64,000 nt of DNA from Euzebya pacifica (GTDB lineage: Bacteria; Actinomycetota; Nitriliruptoria; Euzebyales; Euzebyaceae). The position numbers and the translations under genes are program-made. This document shows, one piece after another, positions 8,007-64,000 of the stretch. The stretch covers positions 372,001-436,000 of the forward strand of contig NZ_CP031165.1 of assembly GCF_003344865.1 (NCBI RefSeq), in the 5' to 3' direction. The stretch's first letter is position 1. Every line of letters begins with the position of its first letter. The notes beneath the pieces are model-generated. The model saw only the letters and a program-made list of their open reading frames with translations, did not search any database and had not been told where the DNA came from.

Positions 8007-8021
8007 GCCGACAGCAACGAA

Positions 8022-14519: not shown

Positions 14520-14521
14520 TC

Positions 14522-14550: not shown

Positions 14551-14574
14551 TCGTTCGTGCGGAGGGTTGTCGGT

Positions 14575-40282: not shown

Positions 40283-40363
40283 ATGGACTTCCGTCGTGTG
40301 CTCGGCGCATCGGTGGGGCGTGGCGAACCGGTGGTGGTCGAGCAGGAGACGAGGACGTCATGA
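40283..40363 (+). CDS. Possible 26-aa leader peptide
   Basis: A 26-codon frame (MDFRRVLGASVGRGEP and a short tail) with AGGAG about nine bases before ATG 40283. Its TGA overlaps the ATG of the next gene (ATGA at 40360-40363), so its translation would deliver ribosomes to the DUF4287-like gene, which has no strong site of its own. No regulatory codon run (for example repeated single amino acids) is visible. Confidence 0.4.
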   Translation: MDFRRVLGASVGRGEPVVVEQETRTS

Positions 40364-41243: not shown

Positions 41244-43796
41244 GTGTCTGCAGTTCCGCTCACCGAGTGGCTCTCGTCGTTTCCCGAGTCGGGCCCGCAT
41301 CGCCGAATGCTCGCGGCGTTGGCGGATGGCGGCTCGGGGGACGTCGTCGCCCTCCTTCGGCATCTGTTGCGTCAGCAAGAGATGACGGGCAACGGAGTGC
41401 CCAGCCTGAACTACGCGGAGCTTGCCGAAGTCGGCATCACAGCCTCCGCTGCACGTGACGCAGGAATTGACGTCCTCGGGAGCGGACTCCGAGTTTCCGG
41501 GACACGTCAGTGGTCTCCCCAGTGGATCCGGGGCGATCTGCGCGCTGTGGACTTGGCCATCAGCGCGCCCTTCGGCATGCAGAGCGCGGTCGGAACTGTG
41601 CCCTCGCTGTCGAGGACCGACAGCAGTGTTCCCCTCGACCCGTTCTTGGCTGAACGTTTCGACTTCCCCGGCTACCGCGGGATCGGGCAGCGAGAAGCCG
41701 TTCGTGCGGCTCTCCGGTGCCCCGCCGGCGAGGCGCTCTACATCGTGCTTCCGACCGGGACAGGAAAGAGCCTGGCCGGCATGGCCCGGGGACTCGTGGA
41801 GCAGGACCGGACAACCGTCGTCGTGGTGCCCACGATCGCGCTGGCGCTGGACCAAGAACGCGAGGTCCTCCAGAGTCCTGCTGCGAAGAACCTACCGAAC
41901 CGTCTCGCCTACACCTCCGACCTGAGCCCGGAGGACCGCGCAGCGGTGCGCGAACGCCTGCGCCTCGGCACGCAACGGCTGGTGTTCACCTCCCCGGAGA
42001 GCGCCACGGGTTCCTTGGCTCCCACGCTGCTATCCGTTGCGTCGGCCGGTCAGCTTTCCACCCTCGTTGTGGATGAGGCGCACATGGTCTCAGCGTGGGG
42101 CGACGACTTCCGTGCCCACTTCCAGCTATTGCCCGCCCTACGGCGGGCCTTGGTTGCGGCCGCTCGGGAGAGCGGCCAACGGGCACCCGCAACCCTGCTG
42201 ATGACCGCGACGCTCACCCAGTCCACGTTCGAGCACCTCAACTCGCTTTTTGGACTCGCGCGGCCAGAGATGGTGTCCGTGTCCGCCCTACGGCCGGAAC
42301 CTCGTTACCTCCTCGCGGAGGAGGTTGGCCTCGATCTACGCGACCAACGGGTCATCGAAGCGCTGAGGTTCCTTCCGCGTCCCATCATCGTCTACTCGAC
42401 GAAGCGCGAGGACTGCGAACGACTCGCGAGCATGGCCCGGGAAGTCGGATATCGGCGAACCGCGACCTTCCACGGCGACACTAGCTCCGCGGACCGCCGT
42501 AGGGTCCTCGAGGGCTGGTCGAGCCGGAGGCCGACCGTGGACGTCGTGTTCGGCACGAGCGCGTTCGGCCTGGGCGTCAACCTCGCCAACGTCCGATCAG
42601 TGGTTCACGCCTGCATCCCGGAGTCGCTGGACCGCTACTACCAGGAGGTGGGCCGTGGCGGTCGAGACCATCACACCTCCGTTGCACTCCTTGCTCCCTC
42701 CCGGGGTGCTGACGAGCCGATCGCGAGGAGCTTGGCTTCGAGTCGACTCATCCAAGCCCCCAAGGGATTCGCGCGGTGGTCGGACATGCGTGACCTGGCG
42801 GTGTCAGACGACGGGTACCTCGACGTCCGGGTCGACACCGTGCCGACACCCCGGCCCGACATCGACCTGAAGATCGACCGCCGGTCCGACCGAAACCAGA
42901 TGTGGAACCGGCTCACGCTCAACCTGATGGCGTCGGCAGGCGCCATCAGGCTCGAGCTCGTGCCTCCCCCGACAAAGACCGAGGCCGAGTCCGACGAAGC
43001 GTGGGAGGCACGCAGGGACCTGGCGTTCCAGGATTGGGCCCAGACGCAGCGAGTGACGGTCCTGGCGCACGACCTTTCCACCCAGGAAGGATGGGCCACG
43101 GCCACCGCCGACGCCAGACGACGCAGCGGCGACGGGTCTGACTCCAGCATCGAACGCATGCTGCACCTCGTCGGGGCGAAGAAGTGCTGGCGATCCGCAC
43201 TCCTGGAGGAGTACACGATGGACGCCGCTCTGGCGACAGGGGACGTCAGGATCGTCCCCTTCGGGGGGTGCCCCGGCTGTCCTGGATGCGTGCCCGACGA
43301 ACCCGAACCGCTCACGCCGATGGTCGCTCGCGTCGATCGTCGGACCGCCGTAGCGGCATTCCGGGCCTCGAGTTCGGCGGACCTCCCGGACGGGGTGCAC
43401 AGTCTCCTACTGACGGCGCCTGGTGACGCACGGTCGTTCAAGAGGGCAGCGAAGCGTGTCGCTGAGGTCGCGGTCACGCAATGGCGCATCGAACGGATCG
43501 TGGACGAGCGTGGGGTACTGGGCCCACCTGAGGGCGCGGCGCTCCAGACGATCAACCGGTCCGCGGACTCCGGGTGGGTGGCGCTTGATCACGCCCTTGG
43601 CGCGCCGGCCTTCCCCATCCCCACCTTGGTGGTCGTGGACCCAGTCGACGAGGTGCCCCCCGAGTTCTTCGATGTCGATGGAGCTCCTCGTGTCCTGCTG
43701 TGCGCAGACGGCGCAGAAGCGTTCGATGGCCGGAGCGCGACCCCGCAACCACTCTCGACCTGGCACCCGACCACGTCCTTCGAAGAGGTGATCTGA
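41244..43796 (+). CDS. dpdF: DpdF: RecQ-like superfamily 2 helicase
   Basis: First gene of the plus-strand dpd operon, 850 residues from GTG 41244, which has AGGAAGG six bases upstream; the open frame continues far to the left but only through another gene. Helicase motifs are of RecQ type: YRGIGQREAVRAAL (Q motif), LPTGTGKS (169-176), DEAH (277-280) followed by MVSAWGDDFR, TATLTQSTFEHL, IVYSTKREDCERL, GTSAFGLGVN and QEVGRGGRD. There is a C-terminal Cys cluster CPGCPGC, possibly a metal site. It lacks a recognisable HRDC domain, unlike housekeeping RecQ. In Salmonella Montevideo DpdF belongs to the 11-gene dpd cluster. Likely role: ATP-driven DNA remodelling during restriction of unmodified DNA. 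Two bases separate its stop from dpdG. Confidence 0.88.
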   Translation: MSAVPLTEWLSSFPESGPHRRMLAALADGGSGDVVALLRHLLRQQEMTGNGVPSLNYAELAEVGITASAARDAGIDVLGSGLRVSGTRQWSPQWIRGDLRAVDLAISAPFGMQSAVGTVPSLSRTDSSVPLDPFLAERFDFPGYRGIGQREAVRAALRCPAGEALYIVLPTGTGKSLAGMARGLVEQDRTTVVVVPTIALALDQEREVLQSPAAKNLPNRLAYTSDLSPEDRAAVRERLRLGTQRLVFTSPESATGSLAPTLLSVASAGQLSTLVVDEAHMVSAWGDDFRAHFQLLPALRRALVAAARESGQRAPATLLMTATLTQSTFEHLNSLFGLARPEMVSVSALRPEPRYLLAEEVGLDLRDQRVIEALRFLPRPIIVYSTKREDCERLASMAREVGYRRTATFHGDTSSADRRRVLEGWSSRRPTVDVVFGTSAFGLGVNLANVRSVVHACIPESLDRYYQEVGRGGRDHHTSVALLAPSRGADEPIARSLASSRLIQAPKGFARWSDMRDLAVSDDGYLDVRVDTVPTPRPDIDLKIDRRSDRNQMWNRLTLNLMASAGAIRLELVPPPTKTEAESDEAWEARRDLAFQDWAQTQRVTVLAHDLSTQEGWATATADARRRSGDGSDSSIERMLHLVGAKKCWRSALLEEYTMDAALATGDVRIVPFGGCPGCPGCVPDEPEPLTPMVARVDRRTAVAAFRASSSADLPDGVHSLLLTAPGDARSFKRAAKRVAEVAVTQWRIERIVDERGVLGPPEGAALQTINRSADSGWVALDHALGAPAFPIPTLVVVDPVDEVPPEFFDVDGAPRVLLCADGAEAFDGRSATPQPLSTWHPTTSFEEVI

Positions 43797-43798
43797 GT

Positions 43799-44722
43799 AT
43801 GGCAATGCTCACCCCGCCCGAGGCGCTCCCCGCGCTGCTCCTGGCGGTCATGCGTCACGTGCAGGCGGAGGGGCGCGTTCATCGCGAGCTTCTGCACAAG
43901 CGCTTCGCTCCCCAGGCGCTGTTCGATGAGCCCAGGGGGCCTGACGACGGAGCCTACGGATCCACAGTTGCCATGGGAAGGTCCATCGGCGTGCTCCACG
44001 GAGGCACGGTGAGGGATCCGGAGGTTCGGCTCGATGAGGAGTTCGAGTCCTTCTCCGACGAAATCAACGCCGCCGTACTGCGGTCGTGGACGATGAGAAT
44101 CGACGCGGACGATCCGGATCCCTACAGCATGGCCGACGGCAAGGTTGTGTCCACGGGGTGCCGTGACATGCAGCGGGCTTTGGCTTGGTTCCTGACATTG
44201 GATCCCCGCGGGCCGGCACTCACCTGGACCAGCAAGAAGGTCCATAGCGTTGATGAACATCAGCAGACCCTCCCCAGGCACCTGTGGCCATTCGAGAACT
44301 CGACGCGATGGGGGGGTTTCACGCGGTGGGCAACCCTGCTGGGCTTCACGAGACCTCGGCCGTCGGAGAAGGTGGACGGTTTCGTACCCGATCTGTACGT
44401 CCCGACACGGGACGAGATCGGCGGTCTGCTCACTGATGATCCTAAAGAGCTCGCCGGGGTACTGGACCGCCTCGCAGCCCGGCTGCCTGTGATCGCGGGT
44501 GGTCAGATCCGTGGCTACATGCTGAAGCACCTCCAGTCCCAACAGGACGGGGTGGACGTGGCGCTTGCCCAAGCGCTGCTCCGGCTCGAGTCCGAGGGGG
44601 TCATCGCCCTGTCCACGGTCCAGGACTACACCATCAGCAACCCAAGCGGCATCGTCCGCTTGCTCTCGGGGTCGCGCGAGGAACGAGCGTTCACCCACAT
44701 CGCCCAAGGGGTATCCGCATGA
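43799..44722 (+). CDS. dpdG: DpdG-like protein
   Basis: A 307-residue protein assigned by position between DpdF and DpdH and by general size; no catalytic motif is visible. ATG 43799 lies two bases after the dpdF stop, and a purine-rich segment inside the end of dpdF (GAAGAGGTGA) can serve as its ribosome-binding site; ATG 43805 is an alternative. The C-terminal part (GYMLKHLQSQQDGVDVALAQ, LLRLESEGVIAL) has the look of a winged-helix segment. Its 3' end overlaps dpdH by four bases (ATGA). dpdG was reported as needed for the restriction phenotype in Salmonella. The gene could also be a divergent component not orthologous to dpdG. Confidence 0.68.
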   Translation: MAMLTPPEALPALLLAVMRHVQAEGRVHRELLHKRFAPQALFDEPRGPDDGAYGSTVAMGRSIGVLHGGTVRDPEVRLDEEFESFSDEINAAVLRSWTMRIDADDPDPYSMADGKVVSTGCRDMQRALAWFLTLDPRGPALTWTSKKVHSVDEHQQTLPRHLWPFENSTRWGGFTRWATLLGFTRPRPSEKVDGFVPDLYVPTRDEIGGLLTDDPKELAGVLDRLAARLPVIAGGQIRGYMLKHLQSQQDGVDVALAQALLRLESEGVIALSTVQDYTISNPSGIVRLLSGSREERAFTHIAQGVSA

Positions 44723-47700
44723 GCACCAAGACCTGCTGGTCCCGGACAGACGCCACCGACATCATGCTTGTCGACGCCGGGGAACCAGACGAGCAGAGCA
44801 ACCGGAGGTTCCTCGCAACTCACGTCCCTCAGGACGTCCAGATGTGGACGGGGCGGCAATGGGCGCAGACCCCGCAACCCGAGGGCGCCACAAGCGACAT
44901 CGACTCGCTGGCCTCGCACATCGCCGACGCGCCGATGGACGCGTCGATGTGCTGGGTTGCCGGCGATCCAGGAACCGGCAAGTCCCACCTCGTCAGGTGG
45001 CTGTGGCTGGCCAGGGTGCGCGACGCCCGTGCGGGCGAGCGGACCGTCTTCGTACCCCGCAGCGACACCTCATCCCTACGCCGGGTTGTCGACCGAATCA
45101 TCGGCGACGAGTCCGGCGAGGAAATGGATGCTGTGCGGGAAGCGCTGTCCGAAGCCGCTGACAGCTACCCGACGATGACCTCCGCTCGCCGGACCCTCAT
45201 CCTCGAGCTCGCAAACATCGCGGCCGATGATTGGGCCTTGGCGGAGTCCGAGAGCTTCAGGCCGTTCACTGAACGAAGCTGGTCCAGCGACCACGTTCGA
45301 GTGGCACGAAACCTGTTCTCCTGGCTGACCGAGGAGCAGTTCCTGAACCAGTTGCTGTCCGACGATGGTCTGGCCGCGCGGGTCGCCGGTACACGTCTCG
45401 GGCGTCGCCGGGCGGAGGAACGCGAGGAAGAAGATCTCGTGTTCGCTCCCCGTGACCTTCCGCTGGCCCCTGAGAAGGTTGAGCGTGCGTCTGCTCCAGC
45501 CAGGGAGCTCCACGAGCTGATCTCTGACGACGGGCATTTCCAACAACGGCTGGTCCAGGTGCTGAACACCTACCTCGATCGGGCGGTGCAGAAGGTCTTC
45601 GGTGTCAGGCAGGGAATGGTCACCGACGCCGCGCTGGAGCTGCGACGTCGACTCAAGGAACGCGGCGAGACCCTCTGGCTCTACTTCGAGGACTTCGCGG
45701 TCCTTCAGGGGGTACAGCAAGAGCTTCTCGATGTCTTCGTGGACAACGCCCCCGCCCTCTGTGATATCCGCGTGGTGGCCGCGATCACCCCGGGCCCGCT
45801 GAGCCAGCTCCCGACGATGGTGTGGGGCCGGACGTCCGCTGTTGTGGACCTCAATATGGCGACCGGTGCTGCTGGACAGTTCCGCGACCAGCTCGTGGGG
45901 CGCTACCTCAACGCCGTCCGTGTCGGTACGGATCGGCTGGCAAGCCTGTCCATCGACGCTCCCACACCGAACCAGTGCAACGACTGCCCCTTGGGACTGT
46001 CGGCGGAGTGCCACGAGGCGTTCGGGACCGTGGAGGTCGAGGGAGTCGGGCACGTCGGTCTGTATCCGTTCAACCGTCAAGCGCTCGAACGGGCGGTCGC
46101 GGCCAAACTGGGGGATGAAGAGTCCCAAACGTTCGTGCCGCGGTTCGTGATCACCGATGTGCTACGCAACATGGTGCACAGCAACCACGCGGTGCTCGAG
46201 GGGGGTCGGTTCCCAAGGCCCGCCGTTGTCGATCAGTTCACCGTTGCGGACGACCGGATCCGTCAGGGCGTGAGAGACATGCTTCACGACGGCTGTGTGG
46301 ATGCTGGGATGGACACCTCGGCCGCTGAGCGACTCGTAGCGTTCCAGGGGCTGTGGGGTAGGTCAAGGGTTGCGTTCGATGAGGTTCCTGAGGGCGCGAG
46401 GTCCCTGTTCAACCTGCCGGCCCCTCCAACCTCCCAGATGGAGGTCAACGAACCGAAGGGTGCCCCTCCGACCCGGAAGCCGCGACCCCAACCCGGCGGA
46501 ACGCCTCCAGCTACCGTCGCGCCGCCGACCCGCCCCGACAAGGTGCAGGAGGTTGACCGGTGGACAGAAGAGCCCTCTCGCGAGCTCCCCGAGGCGCTGC
46601 GCCGGGACGTTCGTCAGCGCATCCACGCTCGCGTTGTCAGCAGCCTTGGCCTGCACGATGGCCGTCACAGCGCGAAGGCGTGGTCAGGACGGGATGGGTT
46701 CGAGCCTGAGGACATCGTGCTCGACGGTCGTGCTCCCGCAGGCCGACGGCCCCAGCTGGTTCACCTCGACAAGTCTCCGGAGGTTGCACTGGCGCTGGAG
46801 GAAGTCGTCTGGGATCAGGCGAACCCTTTCCTCGGCGGCAACGACACAGCTGCACGTCAGCGACGGGCGGCAGACATGCTTGTCGACCGTCTGGCCGAGC
46901 AGGTTTCCGCTGAGACGCTCATCGGTGGGCCGGAAGCGGAACATGCACAAGCGGTCCACCTGCTCCGCTTGCTCCTCTCGACGGGAGCAGTGCTCGGGCT
47001 TCACTGCGAGAGCGATACGCCCGAGGCGGTGATCGACGCTGCCCTCCGAGAGCCCTCGGCGCTTCCGCCCGTCGGTGATCCCGCCTGGGGGAAGCTGCGC
47101 GACGCTGCGTTGGGCAACGCCTCCCGGACTGCGGAAGGCAGTCGGCAGATGGCACGGGACCTGCTCCTCCGGCTTGTCGCGTTCACCCGTGAGGGAGGCA
47201 ACGTGCACGCCGTGGACTTCGACCGGCTCAAGGGTCCGGCTGCCGAGGCGTCCGCAAGCTGGGTCGTGGACCTCAAGGCGCTGCCGCGAGGCGTGCAGGA
47301 CTACGCCAGGACCTTCCAGGAGAGCCTGGCTGCCAACCTTGGCCGTTCCTTGGAGTCTGCGAGGGACTGGGCAGAGAAGGTCCAGGCTGATCTGGATGGT
47401 GATCTCCTCACCATGGCCAAGAAGGTCAGGACATCCTTGACCGCGGGCCGTGGCAGGTCCCTCTTCGTGACGGCTGACGAGCAACGGGTGGTGAACGATG
47501 CGATCGTCACCTGTGACCGGGTCATCGAGCGCGGCCAGCAGGTGGACACCGCCGCGCTGCGACATCTGGCCAAGGAGGTCGCTGCCGTTGATCAGGTCGA
47601 TGAGCGAGCGACGCTACAGGTCCTCGAGCACTACCACCGGTCCCAAAATCAGGTCGGCTTGGTCCGATCGTTGCTGGGCGACGGGAGAGCTGCGCTGGAG

Positions 47701-47826
47701 ATGGCGCTCTCGAACGCCACCAAGGACCGGAAGGATGGCGACGCCGCCGTCGATCTACCGGATCCACGCGCAACCGTGCAACGCGTTTCCGCCACAGCCC
47801 GAGCACTGAAGGAGGCCATCCGATGA
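44719..47826 (+). CDS. dpdH: DpdH-like P-loop ATPase
   Basis: A 1035-residue protein with a Walker A motif GDPGTGKS at residues 82-89 and a candidate Walker B in LWLYFEDFAVLQ near 315. A cysteine group CNDCPLGLSAECHEAFG near residue 420 could bind zinc or iron-sulfur. After a proline-rich linker (about 575-610) the C-terminal third is helical with acidic and basic stretches. The size, order and N-terminal ATPase match DpdH of dpd clusters. It is coupled to dpdG and to the next gene by ATGA overlaps. Probable role: nucleotide-driven motor or switch of the restriction complex; this is inference from its place in the operon. Confidence 0.75.
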   Translation: MSTKTCWSRTDATDIMLVDAGEPDEQSNRRFLATHVPQDVQMWTGRQWAQTPQPEGATSDIDSLASHIADAPMDASMCWVAGDPGTGKSHLVRWLWLARVRDARAGERTVFVPRSDTSSLRRVVDRIIGDESGEEMDAVREALSEAADSYPTMTSARRTLILELANIAADDWALAESESFRPFTERSWSSDHVRVARNLFSWLTEEQFLNQLLSDDGLAARVAGTRLGRRRAEEREEEDLVFAPRDLPLAPEKVERASAPARELHELISDDGHFQQRLVQVLNTYLDRAVQKVFGVRQGMVTDAALELRRRLKERGETLWLYFEDFAVLQGVQQELLDVFVDNAPALCDIRVVAAITPGPLSQLPTMVWGRTSAVVDLNMATGAAGQFRDQLVGRYLNAVRVGTDRLASLSIDAPTPNQCNDCPLGLSAECHEAFGTVEVEGVGHVGLYPFNRQALERAVAAKLGDEESQTFVPRFVITDVLRNMVHSNHAVLEGGRFPRPAVVDQFTVADDRIRQGVRDMLHDGCVDAGMDTSAAERLVAFQGLWGRSRVAFDEVPEGARSLFNLPAPPTSQMEVNEPKGAPPTRKPRPQPGGTPPATVAPPTRPDKVQEVDRWTEEPSRELPEALRRDVRQRIHARVVSSLGLHDGRHSAKAWSGRDGFEPEDIVLDGRAPAGRRPQLVHLDKSPEVALALEEVVWDQANPFLGGNDTAARQRRAADMLVDRLAEQVSAETLIGGPEAEHAQAVHLLRLLLSTGAVLGLHCESDTPEAVIDAALREPSALPPVGDPAWGKLRDAALGNASRTAEGSRQMARDLLLRLVAFTREGGNVHAVDFDRLKGPAAEASASWVVDLKALPRGVQDYARTFQESLAANLGRSLESARDWAEKVQADLDGDLLTMAKKVRTSLTAGRGRSLFVTADEQRVVNDAIVTCDRVIERGQQVDTAALRHLAKEVAAVDQVDERATLQVLEHYHRSQNQVGLVRSLLGDGRAALEMALSNATKDRKDGDAAVDLPDPRATVQRVSATARALKEAIR

Positions 47827-48536
47827 CGACCATCGCCGCGTTGGCGGACCAGCTCATCTCCGTGTGTGACACACTTGCGGAGGGGGCGGCATCCGCGAGC
47901 CGCATCGCCTCGGCGCTGCGCAGGCTAGAAGGACTGGAGGACGCAGCTGAGGAGCTCGATGACCTCCTGGTTCCGATGAACGAGCTTGCCCTGGTCGAGG
48001 CCACGGTCGACCTTCCCGAGCGTCTGAGCATCCTTGCGCAAGCCCCTGACATCGAAGAGGGGATGGCCTGGCTCGGTGCCGAGGATTCGGTCAACTACCG
48101 GGACCTCGTGCGAGGCGTCGCGAACGACCTCCGGTCTGCTCTTGCCGACGCTTGGACGAATCGGTTGGAAGCAGTCGAAGCGCCTACCGCGAGCCGGACC
48201 GTGCTCCACGCGTTGGAAGGACTGGGGAAGTCCAACCCCGTCGTCATGGCTTCCGTGGCCGTGATTCGCAAGCGTTCGGACGACTTGGCAGAGATGCAGC
48301 GGACAGACACCCCCGAAGAGGGGGAGGGTGCCGCGCTGCTGTTGGCCGAGCACGAGCTGAAACGGGCCTGGGCGTCGATCCACGATTCGGGCGTTCCCGA
48401 GGACCGTCTGGAACTGCTCGAACGCTTGGGCAGCGTCAAGGGCGTACCGATCAGCGAGGTCACCGACGACCAGATCGCGTGGTTGCGTGAAGCCGGACTT
48501 GCAGGTGATTTTGCGCTAAGGCGAAGCGCGATGTGA
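47823..48536 (+). CDS. dpdI: DpdI-like helical protein
   Basis: A 237-residue, mostly helical protein that follows dpdH with an ATGA overlap. It starts MTTIAALADQLISVCDTLAE, continues with RIASALRRLEGLEDAAEELD and ends in a basic tail. I see no enzyme motif; long amphipathic helices suggest a coiled-coil partner, perhaps of DpdH. The dpdI label rests on gene order only. dpdI was among the genes reported as required for restriction in Salmonella Montevideo. After it comes a 78-base gap, the largest inside the operon, with a weak hairpin (AGATCC/GGATCT). Confidence 0.6.
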   Translation: MTTIAALADQLISVCDTLAEGAASASRIASALRRLEGLEDAAEELDDLLVPMNELALVEATVDLPERLSILAQAPDIEEGMAWLGAEDSVNYRDLVRGVANDLRSALADAWTNRLEAVEAPTASRTVLHALEGLGKSNPVVMASVAVIRKRSDDLAEMQRTDTPEEGEGAALLLAEHELKRAWASIHDSGVPEDRLELLERLGSVKGVPISEVTDDQIAWLREAGLAGDFALRRSAM

Positions 48537-48614
48537 ACCGAGAACCCGGGTGTGACCAGATCCGTCGGGGATCTGTCGCAGGGACGGGACCGAACCCGAG
48601 GGTGGTGTTGAGTG

Positions 48615-49808
48615 ATGCTGACGATTGATGTGAGTGAGGGTTCGCAGGGAATCCACCGGTACTTCACCGGAACGGTTTCCATTGCCGAGCTGGACGGGCG
48701 GGTGGTGTTCCCTGAAGACCTCGCTGAGCGCCTCGAGGCGGATGAGGAGATGCAGCGAGCACATTCCGCCTCCCGCACTAGGAAGATGTCCAGCTACCTT
48801 CTCGACGCCGCGGATCACTTCTACAGCGCGGTAACCCTGATCATCATGCCCCTGGACCTGGACGACGATCTGGTCGAGGGCGATCCAGAGAACCTGGGTG
48901 AGGACTGGGGCTGGGCGTTCGAACGGGCCCCCAAGTGGGGCATCAGTCCCGGTCGAAGCCGGTTGGGACGCCTGCATCTCACGGGCAGTGTCCGGTTGTT
49001 TCCCGGAGACGGTCAGCACCGGCTGCTTTCATGCTTCGCCGCGATGCAGACGGACCCCAACATCGGCGTGGAGCAGATCCCCGTAGTGCTCTTGCCCTTC
49101 ACAGGATTCGAACAGGTCCGTCAACTGTTCGCGGACCTCAACCTCAACGCCCGGCCGGTGTCGAAGACCATCGGCTACGACTTCGACTCCCGCGATCCGG
49201 AGGCGCTCCTGGCCAAGGCTGTGGCAGATAGCGTGGATCTCTTCAAGGGGAGGGTCAACAAGCGAAACGGACGTCTGCCAGGAGACTCCGTGATCACGCT
49301 GAACACCATCGTCAAGGGCGACTTCGAGATCGTCACTGCGCTGGGAAAGATCGACGAAGGGCTGCACGAGCAAGTGGCACCTCCGTCCCGGGCGGCGGTC
49401 GCATCAGCGAGGAACCGTCTCTTTGATGGCGACCTCGATGTCCTGACGGAGCGGGTCTGCCGCGTTTGGGACGTTGTCGTCCGGTGCTTCCGGGACGAAT
49501 GGGACTGCGTTCTGAGGAACGAGCCCACGTCCTCCAAGCTTTCGCCCGCGGCCCTCCTTCGTCAGGACTACCTCTTCCCCCACGGCCTAGCCATGCAAGG
49601 TCTCGCCATGGCTGCCGGGGAAGTGATGTGCCTGTGGGGCGATGACTGGCAGCTTCGGTTCGAGAAGGCGGTTGCTTCATTCGACTGGCGGCGCGAGTCG
49701 CCGGACTGGTTCGGTACCGCTGTGGTCACCGGGCCCAACGGACCGCGGATCAACAACACTGGGGCCGCGGTCAAGGACCTGGCACGGACGGTTGCCGCCA
49801 GGGCTTGA
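48615..49808 (+). CDS. DndB-like DGQHR protein 1 (restriction operon)
   Basis: A 397-residue protein with the DGQHR hallmark (132-136, FPGDGQHRLLSCFAAM) and the linked block QLFADLNLNARPVSKTIGYD, where Asp/Asn residues recur as in DndB, the regulator/ATPase of phosphorothioate systems, and in DpdB. The N-terminus (GTVSIAELDGRVVFPEDLAE) fits DndB-type starts. It is inserted between dpdI and dpdJ, a position with no equivalent known to me in the Salmonella cluster, and it keeps the Q-H-R form, whereas the two proteins in the modification operon have Q-Q-R. ATG 48615 is preceded by GTG 48612; either could be used. Possibly senses modification or controls expression; no dndC/D/E genes accompany it. 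Confidence 0.78.
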   Translation: MLTIDVSEGSQGIHRYFTGTVSIAELDGRVVFPEDLAERLEADEEMQRAHSASRTRKMSSYLLDAADHFYSAVTLIIMPLDLDDDLVEGDPENLGEDWGWAFERAPKWGISPGRSRLGRLHLTGSVRLFPGDGQHRLLSCFAAMQTDPNIGVEQIPVVLLPFTGFEQVRQLFADLNLNARPVSKTIGYDFDSRDPEALLAKAVADSVDLFKGRVNKRNGRLPGDSVITLNTIVKGDFEIVTALGKIDEGLHEQVAPPSRAAVASARNRLFDGDLDVLTERVCRVWDVVVRCFRDEWDCVLRNEPTSSKLSPAALLRQDYLFPHGLAMQGLAMAAGEVMCLWGDDWQLRFEKAVASFDWRRESPDWFGTAVVTGPNGPRINNTGAAVKDLARTVAARA

Positions 49809-49989
49809 GCCGCCCCGTCATTCGTTGGGGTAGCCTCCGCGACCGCTCGTTCCTGAAAGTCAACGCAGGGGGAAACCGATCAGCGCACTGAATCGAGACG
49901 GTGACGACGGGACCCGATGGCCGGATGGTGTTGCCGAGGATCTGCTCGACCGTCTGGAGGCCTCGGAGGACGCGCTCCTCAGCTGGGGG

Positions 49990-57067: not shown

Positions 57068-57878
57068 GGTCGCCGCTGGTTCGGTAATGGACTTTATTCC
57101 GTTTGCCACAAGGGGAGAGCGCCTGTTCCGTCGCATACGTGATCTCTGTCGGGTGGAGATACAGATAGCCGCGGAGATTGATCGACGTGCTTCCCTCATC
57201 GACCGGGAGGAATTGGGTTCCAACTTCCTCTCGACAACCCAGGCGTTCTCAATGTTTGGAAGACTTATGAAGGGGGCCCGGTGGGCGCGGAGTGAAATGC
57301 TTAAGAGTGACCCGGTTGCATTCGACTCCTATCTGACGGACCTTATCCTGCATGAGTGTCACGTCGCGGTGGAACAGGTACGCAGGATTTTACCCTTGCT
57401 CATGGATGCCCTCGAAGTGTGTGACAAGTCGCCAAGTCCGGCACTGAGCAGGGAAGTGCGTGATACGCATCCAGACCATTGTATTTACTGTGGGCGCAAT
57501 TCAACGGAGGCGGACGGGAAGCGGTTGACCGTCGAGCATGTTTGGCCGAGCAGTCTCGGTGGCGACACAGACTTTGAGAACCTTGCCCCCGCGTGCAAGG
57601 GCTGTAATTCCGCCCGGAATCACGCTGCGTTATGGACCGAATTCTGGTTTCAGGGGTTCCACGTTAGACCGCGACCTTCGCAGAACGAAGTCGAAACTTT
57701 TGACTCCACCAAATACCGGATCGCTGTGATGCTGTTTCGGGCGGAACGAGACTCCCAAGCCAAATCGCTGAAGGAAGCACTGTACGCCCGAGGACCCATC
57801 CAGTCCTTAGAACTTGAAGGACGAACACAGCCTGTGGACTTCATAGATGTCGCTCGCGAGGCAAGGAAGTACTATTGA
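57057..57878 (+). CDS. HNH endonuclease, extra component of the dpd operon
   Basis: A 273-residue protein with an HNH nuclease domain at about 140-190: C142-x2-C145 and C180-x2-C183 make a zinc knuckle around the E160-H161 pair (LTVEHVWPSSLGG), N175 and H189. The N-terminal 130 residues are helical and unrecognised. GTG 57057 is fixed by AGGAGG at 57044-57049. GC in this gene is plainly lower (about 57% in a line I counted, against about 65% in dpdJ) and codons ending in A or T are frequent, which suggests separate acquisition. It is coupled downstream to a DGQHR gene (TTGA overlap). HNH proteins next to DGQHR proteins may form a two-gene restriction module; that is inference. Confidence 0.85.
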   Translation: MTAKVAAGSVMDFIPFATRGERLFRRIRDLCRVEIQIAAEIDRRASLIDREELGSNFLSTTQAFSMFGRLMKGARWARSEMLKSDPVAFDSYLTDLILHECHVAVEQVRRILPLLMDALEVCDKSPSPALSREVRDTHPDHCIYCGRNSTEADGKRLTVEHVWPSSLGGDTDFENLAPACKGCNSARNHAALWTEFWFQGFHVRPRPSQNEVETFDSTKYRIAVMLFRAERDSQAKSLKEALYARGPIQSLELEGRTQPVDFIDVAREARKYY

Positions 57879-58999
57879 ATACAAATACTGAAGGAACTTC
57901 TGTGTACCAATACCCTTGCTTGCAGGTTGAACAGAGGCCGTCAGTTGAAGAGGCGCCTGTCTGCGTCCTCTTCTCCGCGCCCGCAGGCGACCTCCTGGAG
58001 TGGTGCGAGGTTGATAGGGCCGAGGTTGGCAAGAGTGGGGGAGTTCAAAGGCGAAAGAGTCCGGCCAAGACCAATGCCATTTCGAAGTACTTGGAGCAAG
58101 ACCCAAGGAACACGATTCCCGCCGCGCTGACAATCGCCCTCTATGGCGTCCGTGTCATCGACGAATCGGGTTCAACCCATATTAAAGTTGAAGGCAAGTC
58201 CAAGTCGCTAGTAATTGATGGTCAGCACCGACTCTATGGCGCGGCTGCGAAGCATGGTGACATGCCACTCAACATCGTTGGTCTGATCGATCCATCGGAC
58301 CTAGAGGTCGCATTTCAGTTCCTGGTCATCAACAATAAGTCTACCCGAGTCCCAAGTGATCACATTCGCCTCCTCGCACTTCAGTACGACGACGAAGAGC
58401 TGAGGGCGCGTCTGGCGACTGCTCGAATAAACCTTGATTCGAGTGCGCCGTATGTCGGAATAGTCGATGGTGACGAAGCCTCACCATTCTACCGAAGTCT
58501 AATGTGGCCGGTTGATGATAACCGTAAGGGCCAGGTGAACCTTGTCCGGCCGGCGGCTATTGAACTGGCACTGAACTATTGTGGTAGGAAGGAGTTGCCG
58601 GGGTTGGAGAACGATGATGCGCTTATCGGGTTCTTCTTTGCTATGTGGGGCGCTATCAAGGAGGCGTGGTCAGATCTCTGGGTAGCGGATTCCCGCCTCC
58701 TGAGTAAGGCGGGGTTGGTGGCCATGACGATGTTCATGGTAGATGATCTCACGCCGCTTATTGATCGAGGTGAGGTGGACGCTGGAGACCCCGACTCCGT
58801 CTATGGGGAGACCCGCAAGGTTTTGGAAAGCCTAACCCCTGAATTCTGGGCCGCCGAGTGGGACCTAAAGGGCCTAGATACGCAAGCGGGTCGACAAGTG
58901 ATCGTGGAAGCACTGCAGAAGACTCGGCGAAATCTACGGCGGGATCTGCCTTGGGAGACCGAGGTGCGCTTGGTCTCAGATCGCCAACCGGCCCAGTAA
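57875..58999 (+). CDS. DGQHR-domain protein 2, HNH partner
   Basis: A 374-residue protein with DGQHR at 115-119 (SLVIDGQHRLYGAAAKHGD) and the associated block FQFLVINNKSTRVPSDHIRL. The start is TTG 57875, overlapping the HNH stop by four bases with AAGGAAG upstream. Its GC is low (about 52-58% in lines I counted), like the HNH gene and unlike the rest of the island. Sequence differs strongly from the DGQHR protein between dpdI and dpdJ and from the two DGQQR proteins of the opposite operon, so it is not a recent duplicate. DGQHR proteins of phosphorothioate and deazapurine systems act in regulation or modification; here the pairing with a nuclease suggests control of, or target choice for, that nuclease (inference). 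Confidence 0.82.
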   Translation: MNTNTEGTSVYQYPCLQVEQRPSVEEAPVCVLFSAPAGDLLEWCEVDRAEVGKSGGVQRRKSPAKTNAISKYLEQDPRNTIPAALTIALYGVRVIDESGSTHIKVEGKSKSLVIDGQHRLYGAAAKHGDMPLNIVGLIDPSDLEVAFQFLVINNKSTRVPSDHIRLLALQYDDEELRARLATARINLDSSAPYVGIVDGDEASPFYRSLMWPVDDNRKGQVNLVRPAAIELALNYCGRKELPGLENDDALIGFFFAMWGAIKEAWSDLWVADSRLLSKAGLVAMTMFMVDDLTPLIDRGEVDAGDPDSVYGETRKVLESLTPEFWAAEWDLKGLDTQAGRQVIVEALQKTRRNLRRDLPWETEVRLVSDRQPAQ

Positions 59000-59006
59000 A
59001 CCGGCC

Positions 59007-59026
59007 TTCCACGACTGAGCGTGGAA
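59007..59026 (+). terminator. Candidate terminator of the plus-strand dpd operon
   Basis: TTCCACG / CGTGGAA (7-bp stem, 6-base loop ACTGAG) begins eight bases after the stop of the second DGQHR gene and is followed by purine-rich sequence. Moderate strength. Confidence 0.5.
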
Positions 59027-59055
59027 AGAGGGTTCGTGACGGCTGACCTGAGGTT

Positions 59056-59109
59056 CTGAGGTCTCGCGATGATCGCGGTTGTCGATACAGCAAGCTTCGG
59101 AGACCTCAG
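59056..59109. repeat. 10-bp inverted repeat flanking the transposase remnant's left end
   Basis: CTGAGGTCTC (59056-59065) and its exact complement GAGACCTCAG (59100-59109) are separated by 34 bases, directly before the first coding bases of the decayed ISL3-type transposase. It may be part of an insertion-sequence end or a leftover secondary structure; no matching right end was found. Confidence 0.45.
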
Positions 59110-59110
59110 G

Positions 59111-59519
59111 GTGGGTGACGACACGACGTTGGGCACCGTGTTGCTCGGCTTGGGGCTTCGCGCTGCGCGAAGCCACGCTCGTGGACGGCGAGGTGTGGCT
59201 GTCGGTGGAGACCACCATCCGGCCCCCCGACTGTCTGGACTGTACGGTGGTGGGCCACGCCACATGGCCGCCGCACGGTGCAACTACGGGACCTGGCGAT
59301 CGGCGGACGGCCGTCCCGGCTGGTGTCGTCCAAGCGGATCTGGCGCTGCCGCGAAACGCTGTGCCCCAAGGCGACGTGGACCGAGCGGCGCGATGATGTC
59401 GTCAGACCCCGCAACGGCATGACGGAGCGGGCCCGGGCGGAGGTGTGCCGGCAGGTCGGCAAGCTCGGCCGGCCCGTCGCGCAGCTGGCCGGCGAGTTAG
59501 GGGTCGGCTGGCAGGTCCC
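59111..59519 (+). pseudogene. Decayed 5' part of an ISL3-family transposase
   Basis: Three successive frames together rebuild an ISL3 transposase N-terminus. Frame one gives TLGTVLLGLG, frame two GFALREATLVDGEVWLSVET then RPPDCLDCTVVGHA, and frame three RTVQLRDLAIGGRPSRLV, KRIWRCRETLCPKATWTERR, MTERARAEVCRQVG and LAGELGVGWQV. Cysteine pairs of the N-terminal zinc finger (CLDC, CRETLC) are visible. The first shift falls at a GGGG run near 59152, the second near 59245, each equal to one extra base. The homology stops abruptly after GWQV near 59515, so the catalytic DDE region is lost. A perfect 9-bp hairpin lies at 59154-59174. Non-functional remnant sitting in the seam between the convergent dpd operons. 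Confidence 0.8.
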
Positions 59520-59684
59520 GCCTTCCAAGTCTTTTCTGCCGTCCCATACGGAACGGATGGAGCAACGCTGCCCGATTCTGACCCCAGGTGTCGGTCATGT
59601 TCCTTGAAGGGGCGAGAAAGGCGACGTCGAACCGCATCACCATCTCCCCGCACTGGCTTGAGAATCGACCAGCCGAGACGATGG
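59520..59684. other. Intergenic tail between the convergent dpd operons
   Basis: About 165 bases after the transposase homology ends. Short frames exist on both strands without starts or motifs that I can support. It may be further mobile-element debris. The minus-strand modification operon ends here; no clear terminator hairpin was found. Confidence 0.4.
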
Positions 59685-60797
59685 CTAGGTTGATGTCATC
59701 CGGTACTGAGCGAGCAAGTAGTTGCTCAGCAACTGCTGATCCTTGGACGTGTTCTGTAGCTCGTTCCAGCGGCGCTCGACACCCGGGCCGAACTCCCAGA
59801 ACCCCCGGGTCCAGCGACACACCTCCTCGATCGAGCGGATCTCGGTCTCGAACGTCTCGATGGTCGGGACCCTCACGTCGTACTCACGGTCGAGGATCGC
59901 GTCCATGAGGAAGCCCATCGCGATGACCCCGGCGCCGTGCACGAGGCGTGATCGCCGGGGAGTCTCCTCCCAGGCTTCCGGAAAAACCTTCGCCACAGCC
60001 GTCCAGTAGTTCTTGAGGATCGCGAGCATGGGTTCTTCGTCTCCGGCGCCCGTGAAGGGGTCCCGGAAACGGTAGAGGCCACCCTCGGTGAGAGAGTTGT
60101 CGACCATTCGGAGGACCGAGTTGTCCTTGATGATCCCGTCAGGGTTGGTCGAGGTGCGGATGCGGAGGTGCATCGGGCTGTCGGTGTCGTAGTTCAGGCG
60201 CTCCAGCAGGTACGCCGGGAAGCGCTTGCGTTCCAGGAGCCTCGGCAGCTTCGCCTGGGTCGTGGGCAGCAGCTCGTGGATCAGGCCCTTGGGCAACGGC
60301 TTGGTGGAGTTCACGAGGATGAACTGGGCGCGCTGCTCCTCGAGCGAGTCGGTGATGAAGGCGGTCACGGCCATGGGGAACGCCCCGACGTTGGCCTCCC
60401 GCACCGCGGCCGATCGTTGCTGGCCGTCGACGATGAAGCCTGGCTTGTCCTCTCCCGAACCGTTGACGATCGGGATCTCAAGGTGACCATGGCTGGCGTA
60501 ACCCACCTCATCGGCCGCCGCCAACGGGGTGAACTTCACACGTGAGTCGAACGCCACCACGAGGGCGTTGGGGATCATCGGATCCTCGGCCTCGAGGTAG
60601 TCCTTGATCGCCCGAATGTGCTTGACGGCCTCCGGGCGCTGGTAGCCCTCGACGGCGTTGGCCTCGTCACGCTTCGCTCGGGTCACCGATGCGAAGTCAT
60701 GGATCGACTTGGCGTCGACCGCGAAGGAGTACAGCGTTCGGTTCTCGCCCTGCTTGATCTCGATGGCGGGCACGCGGATGGTCGTTGTGGTGGTCAT
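59685..60797 (-). CDS. DGQQR-domain protein 2 (DpdB paralogue)
   Basis: A 370-residue protein directly after dpdA with no spacing (ATG 60797, dpdA stop at 60798-60800). It carries FIVDGQQRSAAVREANVGAF (DGQQR at 124-128) and FILVNSTKPLPKGLIHELLP. It parallels the other minus-strand protein block by block: GYQRPEAVKHIRAIKDYLEA against GYQRDQVRSHVNDIRDYL, and SRLVHGAGVIAMGFLMDA against SRLMHGAGIRAMGRLMDK. The two are clearly paralogues, now well diverged. In Salmonella one DpdB suffices with DpdA for preQ0 insertion; a second copy suggests a heteromeric or divided function. Either this protein or its paralogue could be the functional DpdB. Confidence 0.82.
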   Translation of the reverse strand: MTTTTTIRVPAIEIKQGENRTLYSFAVDAKSIHDFASVTRAKRDEANAVEGYQRPEAVKHIRAIKDYLEAEDPMIPNALVVAFDSRVKFTPLAAADEVGYASHGHLEIPIVNGSGEDKPGFIVDGQQRSAAVREANVGAFPMAVTAFITDSLEEQRAQFILVNSTKPLPKGLIHELLPTTQAKLPRLLERKRFPAYLLERLNYDTDSPMHLRIRTSTNPDGIIKDNSVLRMVDNSLTEGGLYRFRDPFTGAGDEEPMLAILKNYWTAVAKVFPEAWEETPRRSRLVHGAGVIAMGFLMDAILDREYDVRVPTIETFETEIRSIEEVCRWTRGFWEFGPGVERRWNELQNTSKDQQLLSNYLLAQYRMTST

Positions 60798-62042
60798 CTA
60801 GTGCCCCTCCTGGAGCTTGTCTCGCAGTGTCTGGGCGAACATGGCCACGTTGTGGAACCCCCGCCGCTTGTTTCGTTCTGTGCCCCGGAACAGCACGACC
60901 TCGACGTCGACCTCGGCGCAGATACCGCACTGACAGGTCTCCCAGGGCCGGTCCCTCAGCGTTTCGATGTATCTGTCGGTACGCACCCTGCCGTCCCACA
61001 TGGCGTGGTACTCCGCCAGGGCCTCCAGGACCTCGTCCATCTCGATCTGCCGGTCGGCGTAGGCGCGCACGAGCCGTAGGCATCGCTGCTCGGCCTGATG
61101 GGCGACGTCGTGGTCGATCTTCCCGCTCTTGATCGCTCGCTTAACCTTGGCGTTGCCGTCGACCGGGGGGATCCGGATCGCCGTGTAGCGGCGGTCGGCG
61201 GTGAAGTAGTTGTCGGTGTCGTCCTTGAACGCCCTGAAGAACGGCGACGTCGAGTCGAAGCTGGTCACCCCGAACCGTGCGAAGTCGTGCATGTGCTCGA
61301 CCCGGGTGAGTCCGAGCAGGTGGAGCTGGGTCTCGGGCAGTCGAACCGCGTCGACTGCCTCCAGCACCTCGAGGATCTGCGGGTTCTTCAGCGGCACCAT
61401 GCCGCCCAGGGCAACCCGTCGGTACCCCATCTGCTGGAGCTGCTCCACACACGACGCCATCGACGACGGGCTCCAGCCCTGCGCAGCCCCGACCGGTTCG
61501 AAGGTGCATCCGCGTGCGGCATGCCGGGTCAGGAACTCACCCGCCAGCTCGAGGGTGATGGCCTGCCGCTCCTTCCACATCGGATCGACGTCGTCGGTGC
61601 CCGGCAGGGTGGGCTCGAGGTCGGACTGATGGGCCAGGATGACGTGGTCAGGGGAGATCCCGGCGTCGAACCCGCAGCCGTCGTAGAAGTCAATGACCTC
61701 GTCCGGTGTCACGGGCGGTACCGGCTCATCGACGTAGGTGAACGCACCGCAGTCGCCGAGGGTGATCAGCGGCGGTCCCTCGCTGGCCTCGAGCCGGAAG
61801 AAGCGGTGGGCCCCCTGCCGGTACAGCCGGTGACGCTGGGGGACCGTGTAGCGACCGCTGCTGCCACCGACCCCGTCCACCATGGCCTTGGACACGAGCA
61901 TCCCGTCGTAGGCACGCAGCGTCAGAGCCTCGTGGGCGTAGCGGTCGTCGCGCTGCCGAACGTGGAACGGCGGGTGCTCCTCTCGCTCCATGTCGAAGGT
62001 TGGATCGATCTGGTCCTGGCTGTCCGGGAAGTAGAACAGCAT
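60798..62042 (-). CDS. dpdA: DpdA: tRNA-guanine-transglycosylase-like DNA base-exchange enzyme
   Basis: Predicted to replace guanine in DNA by preQ0. The 414-residue start is ATG 62042, overlapping the upstream stop (TGATG); a longer frame upstream reads antisense to nothing useful and is rejected. Motifs map on the TGT barrel: GDCGAF (Asp97) in place of DSGGFQ, VGAAQGW (Gln188) for the QGG motif, ALGGMVPL (Gly213-Gly214), FDSTSPF (Asp263) at the nucleophile position, and a zinc site C370-x-C372-x2-C375 with His397. It lacks any tRNA-binding PUA domain, as DpdA proteins do. It lies between two DGQQR genes in a tight operon. preQ0 must come from genes outside the window. This protein identifies the island as a dpd system. 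Confidence 0.92.
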   Translation of the reverse strand: MLFYFPDSQDQIDPTFDMEREEHPPFHVRQRDDRYAHEALTLRAYDGMLVSKAMVDGVGGSSGRYTVPQRHRLYRQGAHRFFRLEASEGPPLITLGDCGAFTYVDEPVPPVTPDEVIDFYDGCGFDAGISPDHVILAHQSDLEPTLPGTDDVDPMWKERQAITLELAGEFLTRHAARGCTFEPVGAAQGWSPSSMASCVEQLQQMGYRRVALGGMVPLKNPQILEVLEAVDAVRLPETQLHLLGLTRVEHMHDFARFGVTSFDSTSPFFRAFKDDTDNYFTADRRYTAIRIPPVDGNAKVKRAIKSGKIDHDVAHQAEQRCLRLVRAYADRQIEMDEVLEALAEYHAMWDGRVRTDRYIETLRDRPWETCQCGICAEVDVEVVLFRGTERNKRRGFHNVAMFAQTLRDKLQEGH

Positions 62043-63172
62043 CACGCAACCTTCATCCGCTGCGTGACGTAACGACGGATCAGCAGGTTCGACAACGCCC
62101 GGACGTGCTTCGGGGTGTTCTGGATGTCGTTCCACGCCATGTCGCCGAGGTCCTCCCACTGCCCGTCCAGCCAACGGCAGATGGGCGCGACGGTCCCGAG
62201 CTCGGCCATGATCTGCTCGTGAGCGTCGTCAGCGTTGGGGTTGACCGTCGCCATCACCTTGTCCATGAGACGGCCCATGGCACGTATGCCCGCACCGTGC
62301 ATCAGCCGGCTCTCCGTTGACGGCAGCCCCCAGGCTTCGGGGAACGTGTCCCGCACCGCTGCCCAGTACGCGGTCACGGTCAGCCAGATCGTCTCCGTGT
62401 CGGCCTCGCCGGTCGCCAGGTTGCGGTAGGGGAACAGACAGCCGGATGACTGCTGCAGGCTCTCCTCCAGCATCTTGACGATCGACGTGTCGGTGATCGG
62501 CGCCTGCTTCCGCTCCTCCGGAGCCGAGGACGGTCGGCGGATCATCCCCTGGAACGGGGAGTCGTCCTGGCGGTTGAGCTGATCGCAGATGGCCGCAGGG
62601 AGCTTGCGCATGCCCAGCTTCCGGGAGATGGGCACGACGACCTCCGGGAGGAGCTCGGTCACGAGGCCGCGAGGCAGCGGCTTGGTGTTGTTGACCCGAA
62701 GGAACTGATCTCGCTGCACCGACACCTGATCAGCGACGAACGCGCTGACGGGGATGGGCAGGTCATCACGCATGACGTCGGCGAGCGCGAAGGCGCGCTG
62801 CTGTCCGTCGACGATCCAGGCCGGCTTCCGATCTCCACCCAGGCAGATCTCGAGCGTCCCGCTTCGTGACAACCCGTCGGTTGCCCCGGGACCACGAGAG
62901 GACCGGAAGCGGTGCTCACCGTCCAGCGCGAGGATGATCGCGTTTGGGAAGACGATGTCATCGCCACGCAGGTAGTCGCGGATGTCGTTGACATGGCTAC
63001 GGACCTGGTCTCGCTGGTAGCCGATCAGCTGCCCCTCGTCATCGCGAGAGATCCGTGAGATGTCGGCGACCTGAAGGATCTCAGACGGGGACAACGTGAA
63101 CATGTAGAGGACGTGCCCGCCGGGCTGCTCCAGCTGGAGGGCGCGGCGTTCGATGGTCTTGGTTTCAGACAA
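62042..63172 (-). CDS. dpdB: DpdB: DGQQR-domain protein 1
   Basis: A 376-residue protein just upstream of dpdA. TTG 63172 is used: it gives MSETKTIERRALQLEQPGGH, matching the paralogue's start, and overlaps the upstream gene by eight bases with GGGAGA before it. A longer frame upstream runs in another reading frame of that gene and is discarded. The DGQQR motif is at 122-126 (AWIVDGQQRAFALADVM), followed by QFLRVNNTKPLPRGLVTELL. In Salmonella DpdB is an ATPase needed with DpdA for preQ0 insertion. Note Q-Q-R in place of the classical Q-H-R seen in the two plus-strand DGQHR proteins. Coupled to dpdA by a one-base overlap. Confidence 0.85.
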   Translation of the reverse strand: MSETKTIERRALQLEQPGGHVLYMFTLSPSEILQVADISRISRDDEGQLIGYQRDQVRSHVNDIRDYLRGDDIVFPNAIILALDGEHRFRSSRGPGATDGLSRSGTLEICLGGDRKPAWIVDGQQRAFALADVMRDDLPIPVSAFVADQVSVQRDQFLRVNNTKPLPRGLVTELLPEVVVPISRKLGMRKLPAAICDQLNRQDDSPFQGMIRRPSSAPEERKQAPITDTSIVKMLEESLQQSSGCLFPYRNLATGEADTETIWLTVTAYWAAVRDTFPEAWGLPSTESRLMHGAGIRAMGRLMDKVMATVNPNADDAHEQIMAELGTVAPICRWLDGQWEDLGDMAWNDIQNTPKHVRALSNLLIRRYVTQRMKVA

Positions 63173-64000
63173 GGGTGTTCTCCCGCTTCTCCTGCTTGAC
63201 CGCCTCGAAGAGCTTCCCGAAACGCTTCTGCTCGCATGCCTTGCCGGCGTCGTCACGGAACTTCCGCAGGAGCGGCGACCGGGTCAGCGTCGGGTCACGG
63301 TCCAGCTGCGTCCGGATGAATGCCTTCACCTGCTCGTCGGTGGTCACCTCACGGTCAGGGACAACCTTGGGACGGGCCAGCGCGGTGGTGTCACGCAGGC
63401 TCGACGCGATCTCGTCACGGTCAAGCCCCCGGCCGAGACGCTGGACCACCAGGCTGGCTGCCCGCTGGTTGAGCGACAGGCGGGTGCCAGGTGCGAGCTT
63501 GTCCTCGATCCGTGCGTCGAAGGCGGGATCGTCCGCGGTGCCGTCCAGATCCTTGCCTGCGCACACCAGCATGGCCTGTGGATGGGAAAGCAGCTCGCTG
63601 AGGTCCGTGCCGAAGGCGGCGGCGTACGCGCTGGACGCAACGACCATCACGGGTGCCCCGCCGTTGCTGGGTGGTAGCTCGGCGAGGCGGCGGGGTCTCC
63701 CGGTCCGCAACGCCCGCGACCGCGCTAGCGCCTTCCACCACTGTCGACGACGGACTGCCGAGCGGCGTCCCGACGGGTCGAGTCCGGCGTCGTCCTCGCT
63801 CGGCGGGGAGAACGTCGCTCCGTAGCCGACGATCTCGTCGTCCGCGGCTATCAACCCGTAGCCCGCGGAGGCGACCCAAAGGACGGGGGAGAACCCCGCC
63901 TCCCGGGCGTCGTCCTCCAGCTGCTGGGACTGCAGCCATGCCTCGCCCATGTACCGTTCTCGGGCCGTCATCGCGTCACGCGCAGGGGAGAGCAGCTGCT
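63165..64000 (-). CDS. YaaA/DUF6884-like protein of the modification operon, 5' end outside the window
   Basis: The frame is open to the right edge (codons QLLSPARDA precede ATG 63971), so the start lies beyond the window. The segment reading ERYMGEAWLQSQ, LWVASAGYGLIAADDEIVGY and GATFS follows the pattern of DUF6884/YaaA-type domains, where a short ARD-Y box, a SA-YGL-I strand and a D-I--Y turn are conserved. The rest is helical (RLSLNQRAASLVVQRLG; LTRSPLLRKFRDDAGKA). It precedes dpdB with an eight-base overlap, so it is the first visible gene of the dpdBA operon. Its place would suit dpdC, which converts dPreQ0 to the amide, but I cannot confirm homology. Also possible: a nucleic-acid base handling accessory protein. 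Confidence 0.62.
   Translation of the reverse strand, partial: QLLSPARDAMTARERYMGEAWLQSQQLEDDAREAGFSPVLWVASAGYGLIAADDEIVGYGATFSPPSEDDAGLDPSGRRSAVRRRQWWKALARSRALRTGRPRRLAELPPSNGGAPVMVVASSAYAAAFGTDLSELLSHPQAMLVCAGKDLDGTADDPAFDARIEDKLAPGTRLSLNQRAASLVVQRLGRGLDRDEIASSLRDTTALARPKVVPDREVTTDEQVKAFIRTQLDRDPTLTRSPLLRKFRDDAGKACEQKRFGKLFEAVKQEKRENTLV

What the first reader, a model, noticed from the sequence alone, without database searches (positions are those of the whole stretch)
41244..64000. A dpd-type 7-deazaguanine DNA modification/restriction island with an unusual composition
Seen: DpdA-like transglycosylase with TGT motifs and a Cys-Cys-Cys-His zinc site, DGQQR partners, RecQ-like helicase, P-loop ATPase, DEVH helicase, phospholipase D-fold protein and a DpdD-like protein, in two convergent operons. 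Known: the Salmonella Montevideo dpdA-K cluster inserts preQ0/ADG in DNA and restricts unmodified DNA. Inference: this actinobacterial version does the same but carries three extra genes (two DGQHR, one HNH) and one extra DGQQR copy, and no dpdE is visible in the window.
Basis: partly seen in the sequence, partly recalled or inferred. Interest (0 to 1): 0.9.

Follow-up and report, generated by a model that had tools for sequence, protein, structure and literature searches.

The report
Dpd DNA-modification island with extra nucleases
This is a bacterial anti-virus gene island that probably swaps guanines in the cell's own DNA for a 7-deaza version and destroys unmarked DNA; the core is a known type, but it carries extra nuclease modules that recur in similar islands of other bacteria and that I did not find described.

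Summary
Curated models name DpdA, two DpdB, DpdC, D, F, G, J and K above cut-off; DpdH is 6 bits short; dpdI is named by position and weak similarity. Right of the window come the rest of dpdC, queC, queE and a queD-folE2 fusion. The genome shows no tRNA TGT. Two corrections: the second DpdB is not extra (paired paralogues flank dpdA in all ten actinobacterial relatives checked and on alphaproteobacterial plasmids), and dpdE is missing from the whole genome although nine of those ten have it. Three additions: (1) HNH+DGQHR, translationally coupled to dpdD, recurs in dpd islands of two phyla, and a same-clade pair sits beside dndBCDE on a Pseudomonas plasmid. (2) Just outside the window, in the same low-GC block, lie an AddB-like/AddA-like pair and a glycosylase; the AddB-like protein's only relatives among 72,556 plasmids are on dpd plasmids of Paenibacillus and Deinococcus, beside the same helicase. 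(3) A DndB-like gene separates dpdI from dpdJ. Core kind known, content a variant. Functions are inferred; nothing was assayed.

The parts
41244..43796 (+). dpdF, RecQ-like helicase (first in-frame starts 41244/41253)
   Evidence: NF041063 715 bits, cut-off 550
43793..44722 (+). dpdG
   Evidence: NF041064 96 bits, cut-off 80; 4-base overlap with dpdF
44719..47826 (+). dpdH, P-loop ATPase
   Evidence: NF041065 444 bits, cut-off 450
47823..48536 (+). dpdI-like gene (no library model fires)
   Evidence: no NCBIfam/Pfam hit; same place and size as the gene between dpdH and dpdJ in relatives, shared C-terminal motif, tblastn E=3e-4 to the G645 copy
48612..49808 (+). DGQHR1: DndB-like ParB/Srx-family gene inserted between dpdI and dpdJ
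   Evidence: PF14072 148 bits; groups with DndB 100/100 but on a long branch; absent at this place in relatives; gaps of 75 and 181 bases where relatives overlap
49990..54396 (+). dpdJ, DEVH helicase
   Evidence: NF041067 1517 bits
54393..54926 (+). dpdK, phospholipase-D fold
   Evidence: NF041068 163 bits
54923..57067 (+). dpdD
   Evidence: NF041061 505 bits
57057..57878 (+). HNH endonuclease, coupled to dpdD and DGQHR2
   Evidence: PF01844 41 bits, PF14279 42 bits; overlaps of 11 and 4 bases
57875..58999 (+). DGQHR2, NTPase-like partner of the HNH
   Evidence: TIGR03187 73 bits; own clade apart from DpdB and DndB
59685..60797 (-). dpdB1
   Evidence: NF041060 493 bits
60798..62045 (-). dpdA, DNA-guanine transglycosylase
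   Evidence: NF041059 570 bits; PDB 7ui4 E=1.6e-112
62042..63256 (-). dpdB2
   Evidence: NF041060 413 bits
63165..64000 (-). dpdC, cut by the window end (whole gene is L001:5165-6151, to 64151 on the window scale). Further parts beyond the window, all in L001 (add 58000 for the window scale): queC 6248-6991 +, queE 6988-7629 +, queD-folE2 7640-8956 +, glycosylase 9229-9996 -, AddA-like helicase 9993-12296 -, AddB-like 12272-14971 -, NERD 15157-15741 -
   Evidence: PADLOC DpdC 212 bits; que genes over cut-off; others

Best explanation
A horizontally acquired Dpd island of about 33 kb (41.2 to 73.7 kb on the window scale). FolE2-QueD, QueE and QueC make preQ0. DpdA, helped by two DpdB paralogues, exchanges guanine for preQ0 in DNA, and DpdC converts it to ADG. 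DpdF-G-H-I-J-K-D block or degrade DNA lacking the mark. HNH+DGQHR2, made with that operon, probably forms a two-subunit, NTP-gated nuclease that reads the mark, comparable in logic to SspE, DndI and GmrSD. The AddB-like and AddA-like pair and the glycosylase probably process or degrade DNA once it is cut. Shown here: gene identity, order, coupling, composition and recurrence in other islands. Inferred: the chemistry, restriction, and the jobs of the HNH/DGQHR2, DndB-like and AddAB-like genes.
For: Curated models for the Dpd proteins and a complete preQ0 pathway beside them. No TGT match anywhere in the genome while the same search rings in 14 of 14 control genomes, so preQ0 has no evident tRNA use. 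Ten actinobacterial loci share the dpdC-dpdB2-dpdA-dpdB1 block. Low GC (0.61-0.69) from 40 to 74 kb against 0.71 to the left and 0.70-0.71 to the right, so the AddAB-like genes lie in the same block. HNH+DGQHR2 follows dpdD here, in G031 and G645 and on an Agrobacterium vitis plasmid, and lies after dpdB1 in G397; a weaker pair is on a Bradyrhizobium dpdA plasmid. In two samples of about 395 actinobacterial genomes every full-length DGQHR2 lies in a dpd island. AddB-like protein: two plasmid relatives in 72,556 records, both on dpd plasmids, both next to the AddA-like helicase.
Against: dpdE, present in nine of ten actinobacterial relatives, is gone, so restriction could be weakened or lost. 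Eleven other actinobacterial dpd genomes lack the AddB-like gene, so it is optional at best. The AddB-like nuclease motif could not be recognised in the three-way alignment. No base-modification or phage data exist. AlphaFold models of DGQHR2 and the HNH were too poor to use.
Confidence: 0.85

Rival explanations
1. Modification-only or decayed island: the DNA is marked, but without dpdE the restriction arm no longer works.
For: dpdE absent from the genome, no remnant near the island, present in nine of ten relatives.
Against: All other restriction genes are full length and most overlap by 4 bases; large genes kept open suggest that they are used. The published survey reports islands lacking some genes (PMC11888242).
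Confidence: 0.2
2. HNH+DGQHR2 and the AddAB-like operon are unrelated defence genes that merely landed in the same island.
For: Defence genes cluster; the AddB-like gene is missing in eleven other dpd genomes; HNH+DGQHR2 is in only two of ten dpd genomes found through DpdA; one pair is with dnd, not dpd.
Against: HNH and DGQHR2 are translationally coupled to dpdD. The modules recur with dpd in several phyla, and no full-length relative was found away from a modification island in the collections searched.
Confidence: 0.25
3. The glycosylase and AddAB-like pair are repair genes that tolerate damage caused by 7-deazaguanine DNA or by the restriction arm, not attackers.
For: Endonuclease III-type glycosylase with its cluster motif; AddAB is a break-repair enzyme in other bacteria (general knowledge).
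Against: The helicase lacks the AddA nuclease domain (767 aa against a 1234-position model) and the pair sits at the end of the dpd restriction operon in Paenibacillus.
Confidence: 0.3

Closest known systems
Dpd (dpdA-K) island, Salmonella Montevideo type
   Same: DpdA, B, C, D, F, G, H, J, K and a dpdI-like gene; split into synthesis and restriction operons (layout as in PMC11888242)
   Different: no dpdE; two DpdB; own queC-queE-queD/folE2; DndB-like insert; HNH+DGQHR2; AddAB-like + glycosylase
Actinobacterial dpd islands (Micromonospora, Dactylosporangium, Amycolatopsis, Asanoa)
   Same: dpdC-dpdB2-dpdA-dpdB1 block with queC, queE, queD and mostly folE2 beside it
   Different: they keep dpdE and lack DGQHR2 and the AddB-like gene
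SspE / DndI / GmrSD (DGQQR NTPase + HNH, modification-sensing)
   Same: a ParB/Srx-type DGQ(Q/H)R domain paired with an HNH nuclease; SspE and DndI serve a DNA-marking system (PMC11662687, PMC4619093)
   Different: two genes, PF14072-type DGQHR and PF01844-type HNH, not DUF262 + DUF1524
AddAB / RecBC
   Same: AddA/RecB-like helicase and AddB-like subunit with Fe-S-type cysteines, adjacent genes
   Different: no AddA nuclease domain; no recognised AddB nuclease motif; coupled to a glycosylase here; found in dpd islands

Membership tests
Dpd DNA-modification island | DpdA, DNA-type transglycosylase | tested here: met
   570 bits, cut-off 200; PDB 7ui4
Dpd DNA-modification island | DpdB partner | tested here: met
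   two copies over cut-off
Dpd DNA-modification island | DpdC | tested here: met
   PADLOC DpdC 212 bits
Dpd DNA-modification island | restriction genes dpdD, F, G, H, J, K | tested here: met
   five over cut-off, DpdH 6 bits under
Dpd DNA-modification island | dpdI | tested here: inconclusive
   no model fires; position, size and weak similarity agree
Dpd DNA-modification island | dpdE | tested here: not met
   best genome hit 51 bits, cut-off 500; published islands vary in gene content, so dpdE is not taken as obligatory and this is filed as a variant
Dpd DNA-modification island | dPreQ0/dADG in genomic DNA | not testable with these tools
   needs mass spectrometry
GmrSD/SspE/DndI restriction proteins | DUF262 domain | tested here: not met
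   DGQHR2 matches PF14072 only
GmrSD/SspE/DndI restriction proteins | DUF1524-type HNH | tested here: not met
   HNH matches PF01844/PF14279
AddAB | AddA-type helicase | tested here: met
   TIGR02785/TIGR00609 177 bits, below the full-length cut-offs; GDVKQSIY and HQSKG motifs
AddAB | AddA C-terminal nuclease | tested here: not met
   767 aa; best stretch ends at model position 879 of 1234
AddAB | AddB subunit with Fe-S cysteines and active nuclease | tested here: inconclusive
   four invariant cysteines and weak AddB profile match; nuclease motif not recognised

The most novel reading that the evidence does not exclude
Two effector modules are swapped among DNA-marking systems: HNH+DGQHR2 reads either 7-deazaguanine (Dpd) or phosphorothioate (Dnd) marks, and an AddAB-like helicase pair, here with a glycosylase, is a second, undescribed arm of Dpd immunity found in three phyla.
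Probability: 0.4. Interest if true: 0.8.

Novelty: new variant of a known kind. Interest (0 to 1): 0.58.

Why it matters
How Dpd islands destroy unmarked DNA is not settled in the papers I could read. A nuclease-partner module shared by Dpd and Dnd would give a simple way to ask whether one reader family tells marked from unmarked DNA across unrelated chemistries. The AddAB-like module is a candidate for the DNA-degradation step.

Tried and rejected
Rejected: 'extra DpdB is unusual' (paired copies in relatives; one Enterobacter plasmid shows a single annotated copy). Rejected: HNH+DGQHR2 or the AddAB-like pair replaces dpdE; each coexists with dpdE elsewhere (G031 and G397; Deinococcus). Rejected: DGQHR1 is a displaced Dnd gene; it is only 24-30% identical to DndB of true dnd clusters. 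The main Dpd papers (Thiaville 2016, Gedara 2023) and the 2024 review were not held.

Full report
WHAT IS THERE. The stretch 41244-64000 holds two convergent operons. Plus strand: dpdF, dpdG, dpdH, a dpdI-like gene, a DndB-like gene (DGQHR1), dpdJ, dpdK, dpdD, HNH, DGQHR2. Minus strand: dpdC, dpdB2, dpdA, dpdB1. NCBIfam models fire far above cut-off for DpdA, two DpdB, DpdD, DpdF, DpdJ and DpdK, modestly for DpdG, and 6 bits below cut-off for DpdH. DpdC is named by PADLOC models. DpdA's only solved relative is 7ui4, a DNA-guanine transglycosylase, E=1.6e-112, with the CxCxxC...H site aligned. The only DpdA in the genome is this one, and no TGT match was found elsewhere although the control genomes all rang.

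BEYOND THE WINDOW. The own genome (two contigs, 5.80 and 0.57 Mb) shows queC, queE and a queD-folE2 fusion after dpdC on the plus strand, then on the minus strand an endonuclease III-type glycosylase, an AddA-like helicase, an AddB-like gene and a NERD gene. The AddB-like, AddA-like and glycosylase ORFs overlap by 25 and 4 bases. GC is 0.71 left of 40 kb, 0.61-0.69 from 40 to 74 kb and 0.70-0.71 beyond, so the whole set looks like one acquired block. The AddB-like gene was not found in 60 related genomes.

IS THE COMPOSITION UNUSUAL? Nine named actinobacterial loci and G031 all have dpdC-dpdB2-dpdA-dpdB1, with queC, queE and queD nearby. A tree of 23 DGQHR proteins puts dpdB1 and dpdB2 in separate groups, with both actinobacterial and alphaproteobacterial members in the dpdB2 group: an old pair, not an extra copy. 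A published survey also reports many extra dpdB copies and 333 actinobacterial windows (PMC11888242). Missing dpdE is unusual: nine of ten such genomes carry it over cut-off; the exception is a fragmented MAG. No remnant is seen around the island.

HNH + DGQHR2. The pair is translationally coupled to dpdD (overlaps of 11 and 4 bases). The same pair follows dpdD in G031 and G645, follows dpdB1 in G397, and follows dpdD on an Agrobacterium vitis plasmid, where an IS5 element lies between the two. A weaker DGQHR/HNH pair sits near dpdA on a Bradyrhizobium plasmid. A related pair lies immediately beside dndBCDE on Pseudomonas aeruginosa plasmid ppae01, a plasmid not among those with DpdA. The tree places its DGQHR inside the DGQHR2 clade (99/97 for the core clade, 93/90 for all seven; long branches for A. 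vitis and Bradyrhizobium). In two overlapping samples of about 395 actinobacterial genomes every full-length DGQHR2 is in a dpd island. It is optional: two of ten dpd genomes found through DpdA have it. Known single-protein counterparts, SspE and DndI, join a DGQQR NTPase to an HNH nuclease and sense phosphorothioate (PMC11662687), and GmrSD has the same pairing (PMC4619093). The families differ, so this is a likeness in logic, not membership.

AddAB-LIKE MODULE. The AddB-like protein has two relatives in 72,556 plasmids. One is on Paenibacillus pART37, followed by the same helicase, at the end of a dpd restriction operon. The other is on Deinococcus p_TS293_6, a plasmid carrying dpdE, dpdF, dpdH, a DpdA-like stretch, queC and queD, again followed by the helicase; there a NERD stretch precedes the AddB-like part in the same protein. 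About 18 plasmid records hold dpd genes, so two out of two by chance would be of order 1e-7 (my estimate; it assumes independence and ignores plasmid size). Eleven other actinobacterial dpd genomes lack it, phage records lack it. AddB of AddAB is its only solved match. The glycosylase is linked only in this genome.

MECHANISM. Shown: identities, order, coupling, recurrence. Inferred from established families: preQ0 synthesis, DpdA/DpdB exchange, DpdC conversion, restriction by DpdD-K. Inferred by analogy: DGQHR2 as an NTP-gated reader for the HNH nuclease; the AddAB-like pair as DNA-end processor; the DndB-like gene as regulator. The DndB-like gene is a single-island observation on a long branch.

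VERDICT. A true Dpd island, known in kind, variant in content. The recurring side modules are the interesting part. I did not find either described in the papers held, but key Dpd papers were not available, so novelty of the modules is provisional.

Noticed in passing
G000 C2, L073:10218-11363 (+): A third DpdB (444 bits, cut-off 300) on the 571-kb contig with no DpdA nearby, between C5-cytosine methyltransferase-like ORFs and beside an SNF2-type helicase; it groups with dpdB1. Possible use of a DpdB with a methyltransferase system.
   Followed up: partly
L078:19152-21221 and L104:17206-19176: On the Paenibacillus and Deinococcus dpd plasmids one long ORF appears to join DpdC-like and DpdA-like sequence (DpdC match in the Paenibacillus ORF, DUF6884 annotation in the Deinococcus ORF), and no dpdB match was seen.
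   Followed up: partly
L076:25450-41275 and L077:25103-40762: Methylobacterium and Caulobacter plasmids carry dpdB-dpdA-dpdB-queE-queD-queC followed by a similar set of helicase, unknown genes and a >2000-aa AAA protein instead of the annotated dpd restriction genes.
   Followed up: no
window 40276-41028 (+): A DUF4287-like gene (weak Pfam hit) sits just left of dpdF, where dpdE lies in several relatives.
   Followed up: partly
L060:17374-18822: The Bradyrhizobium DGQHR2-like gene matches in two pieces, the first outside the annotated start, so it may be frameshifted or misannotated.
   Followed up: no
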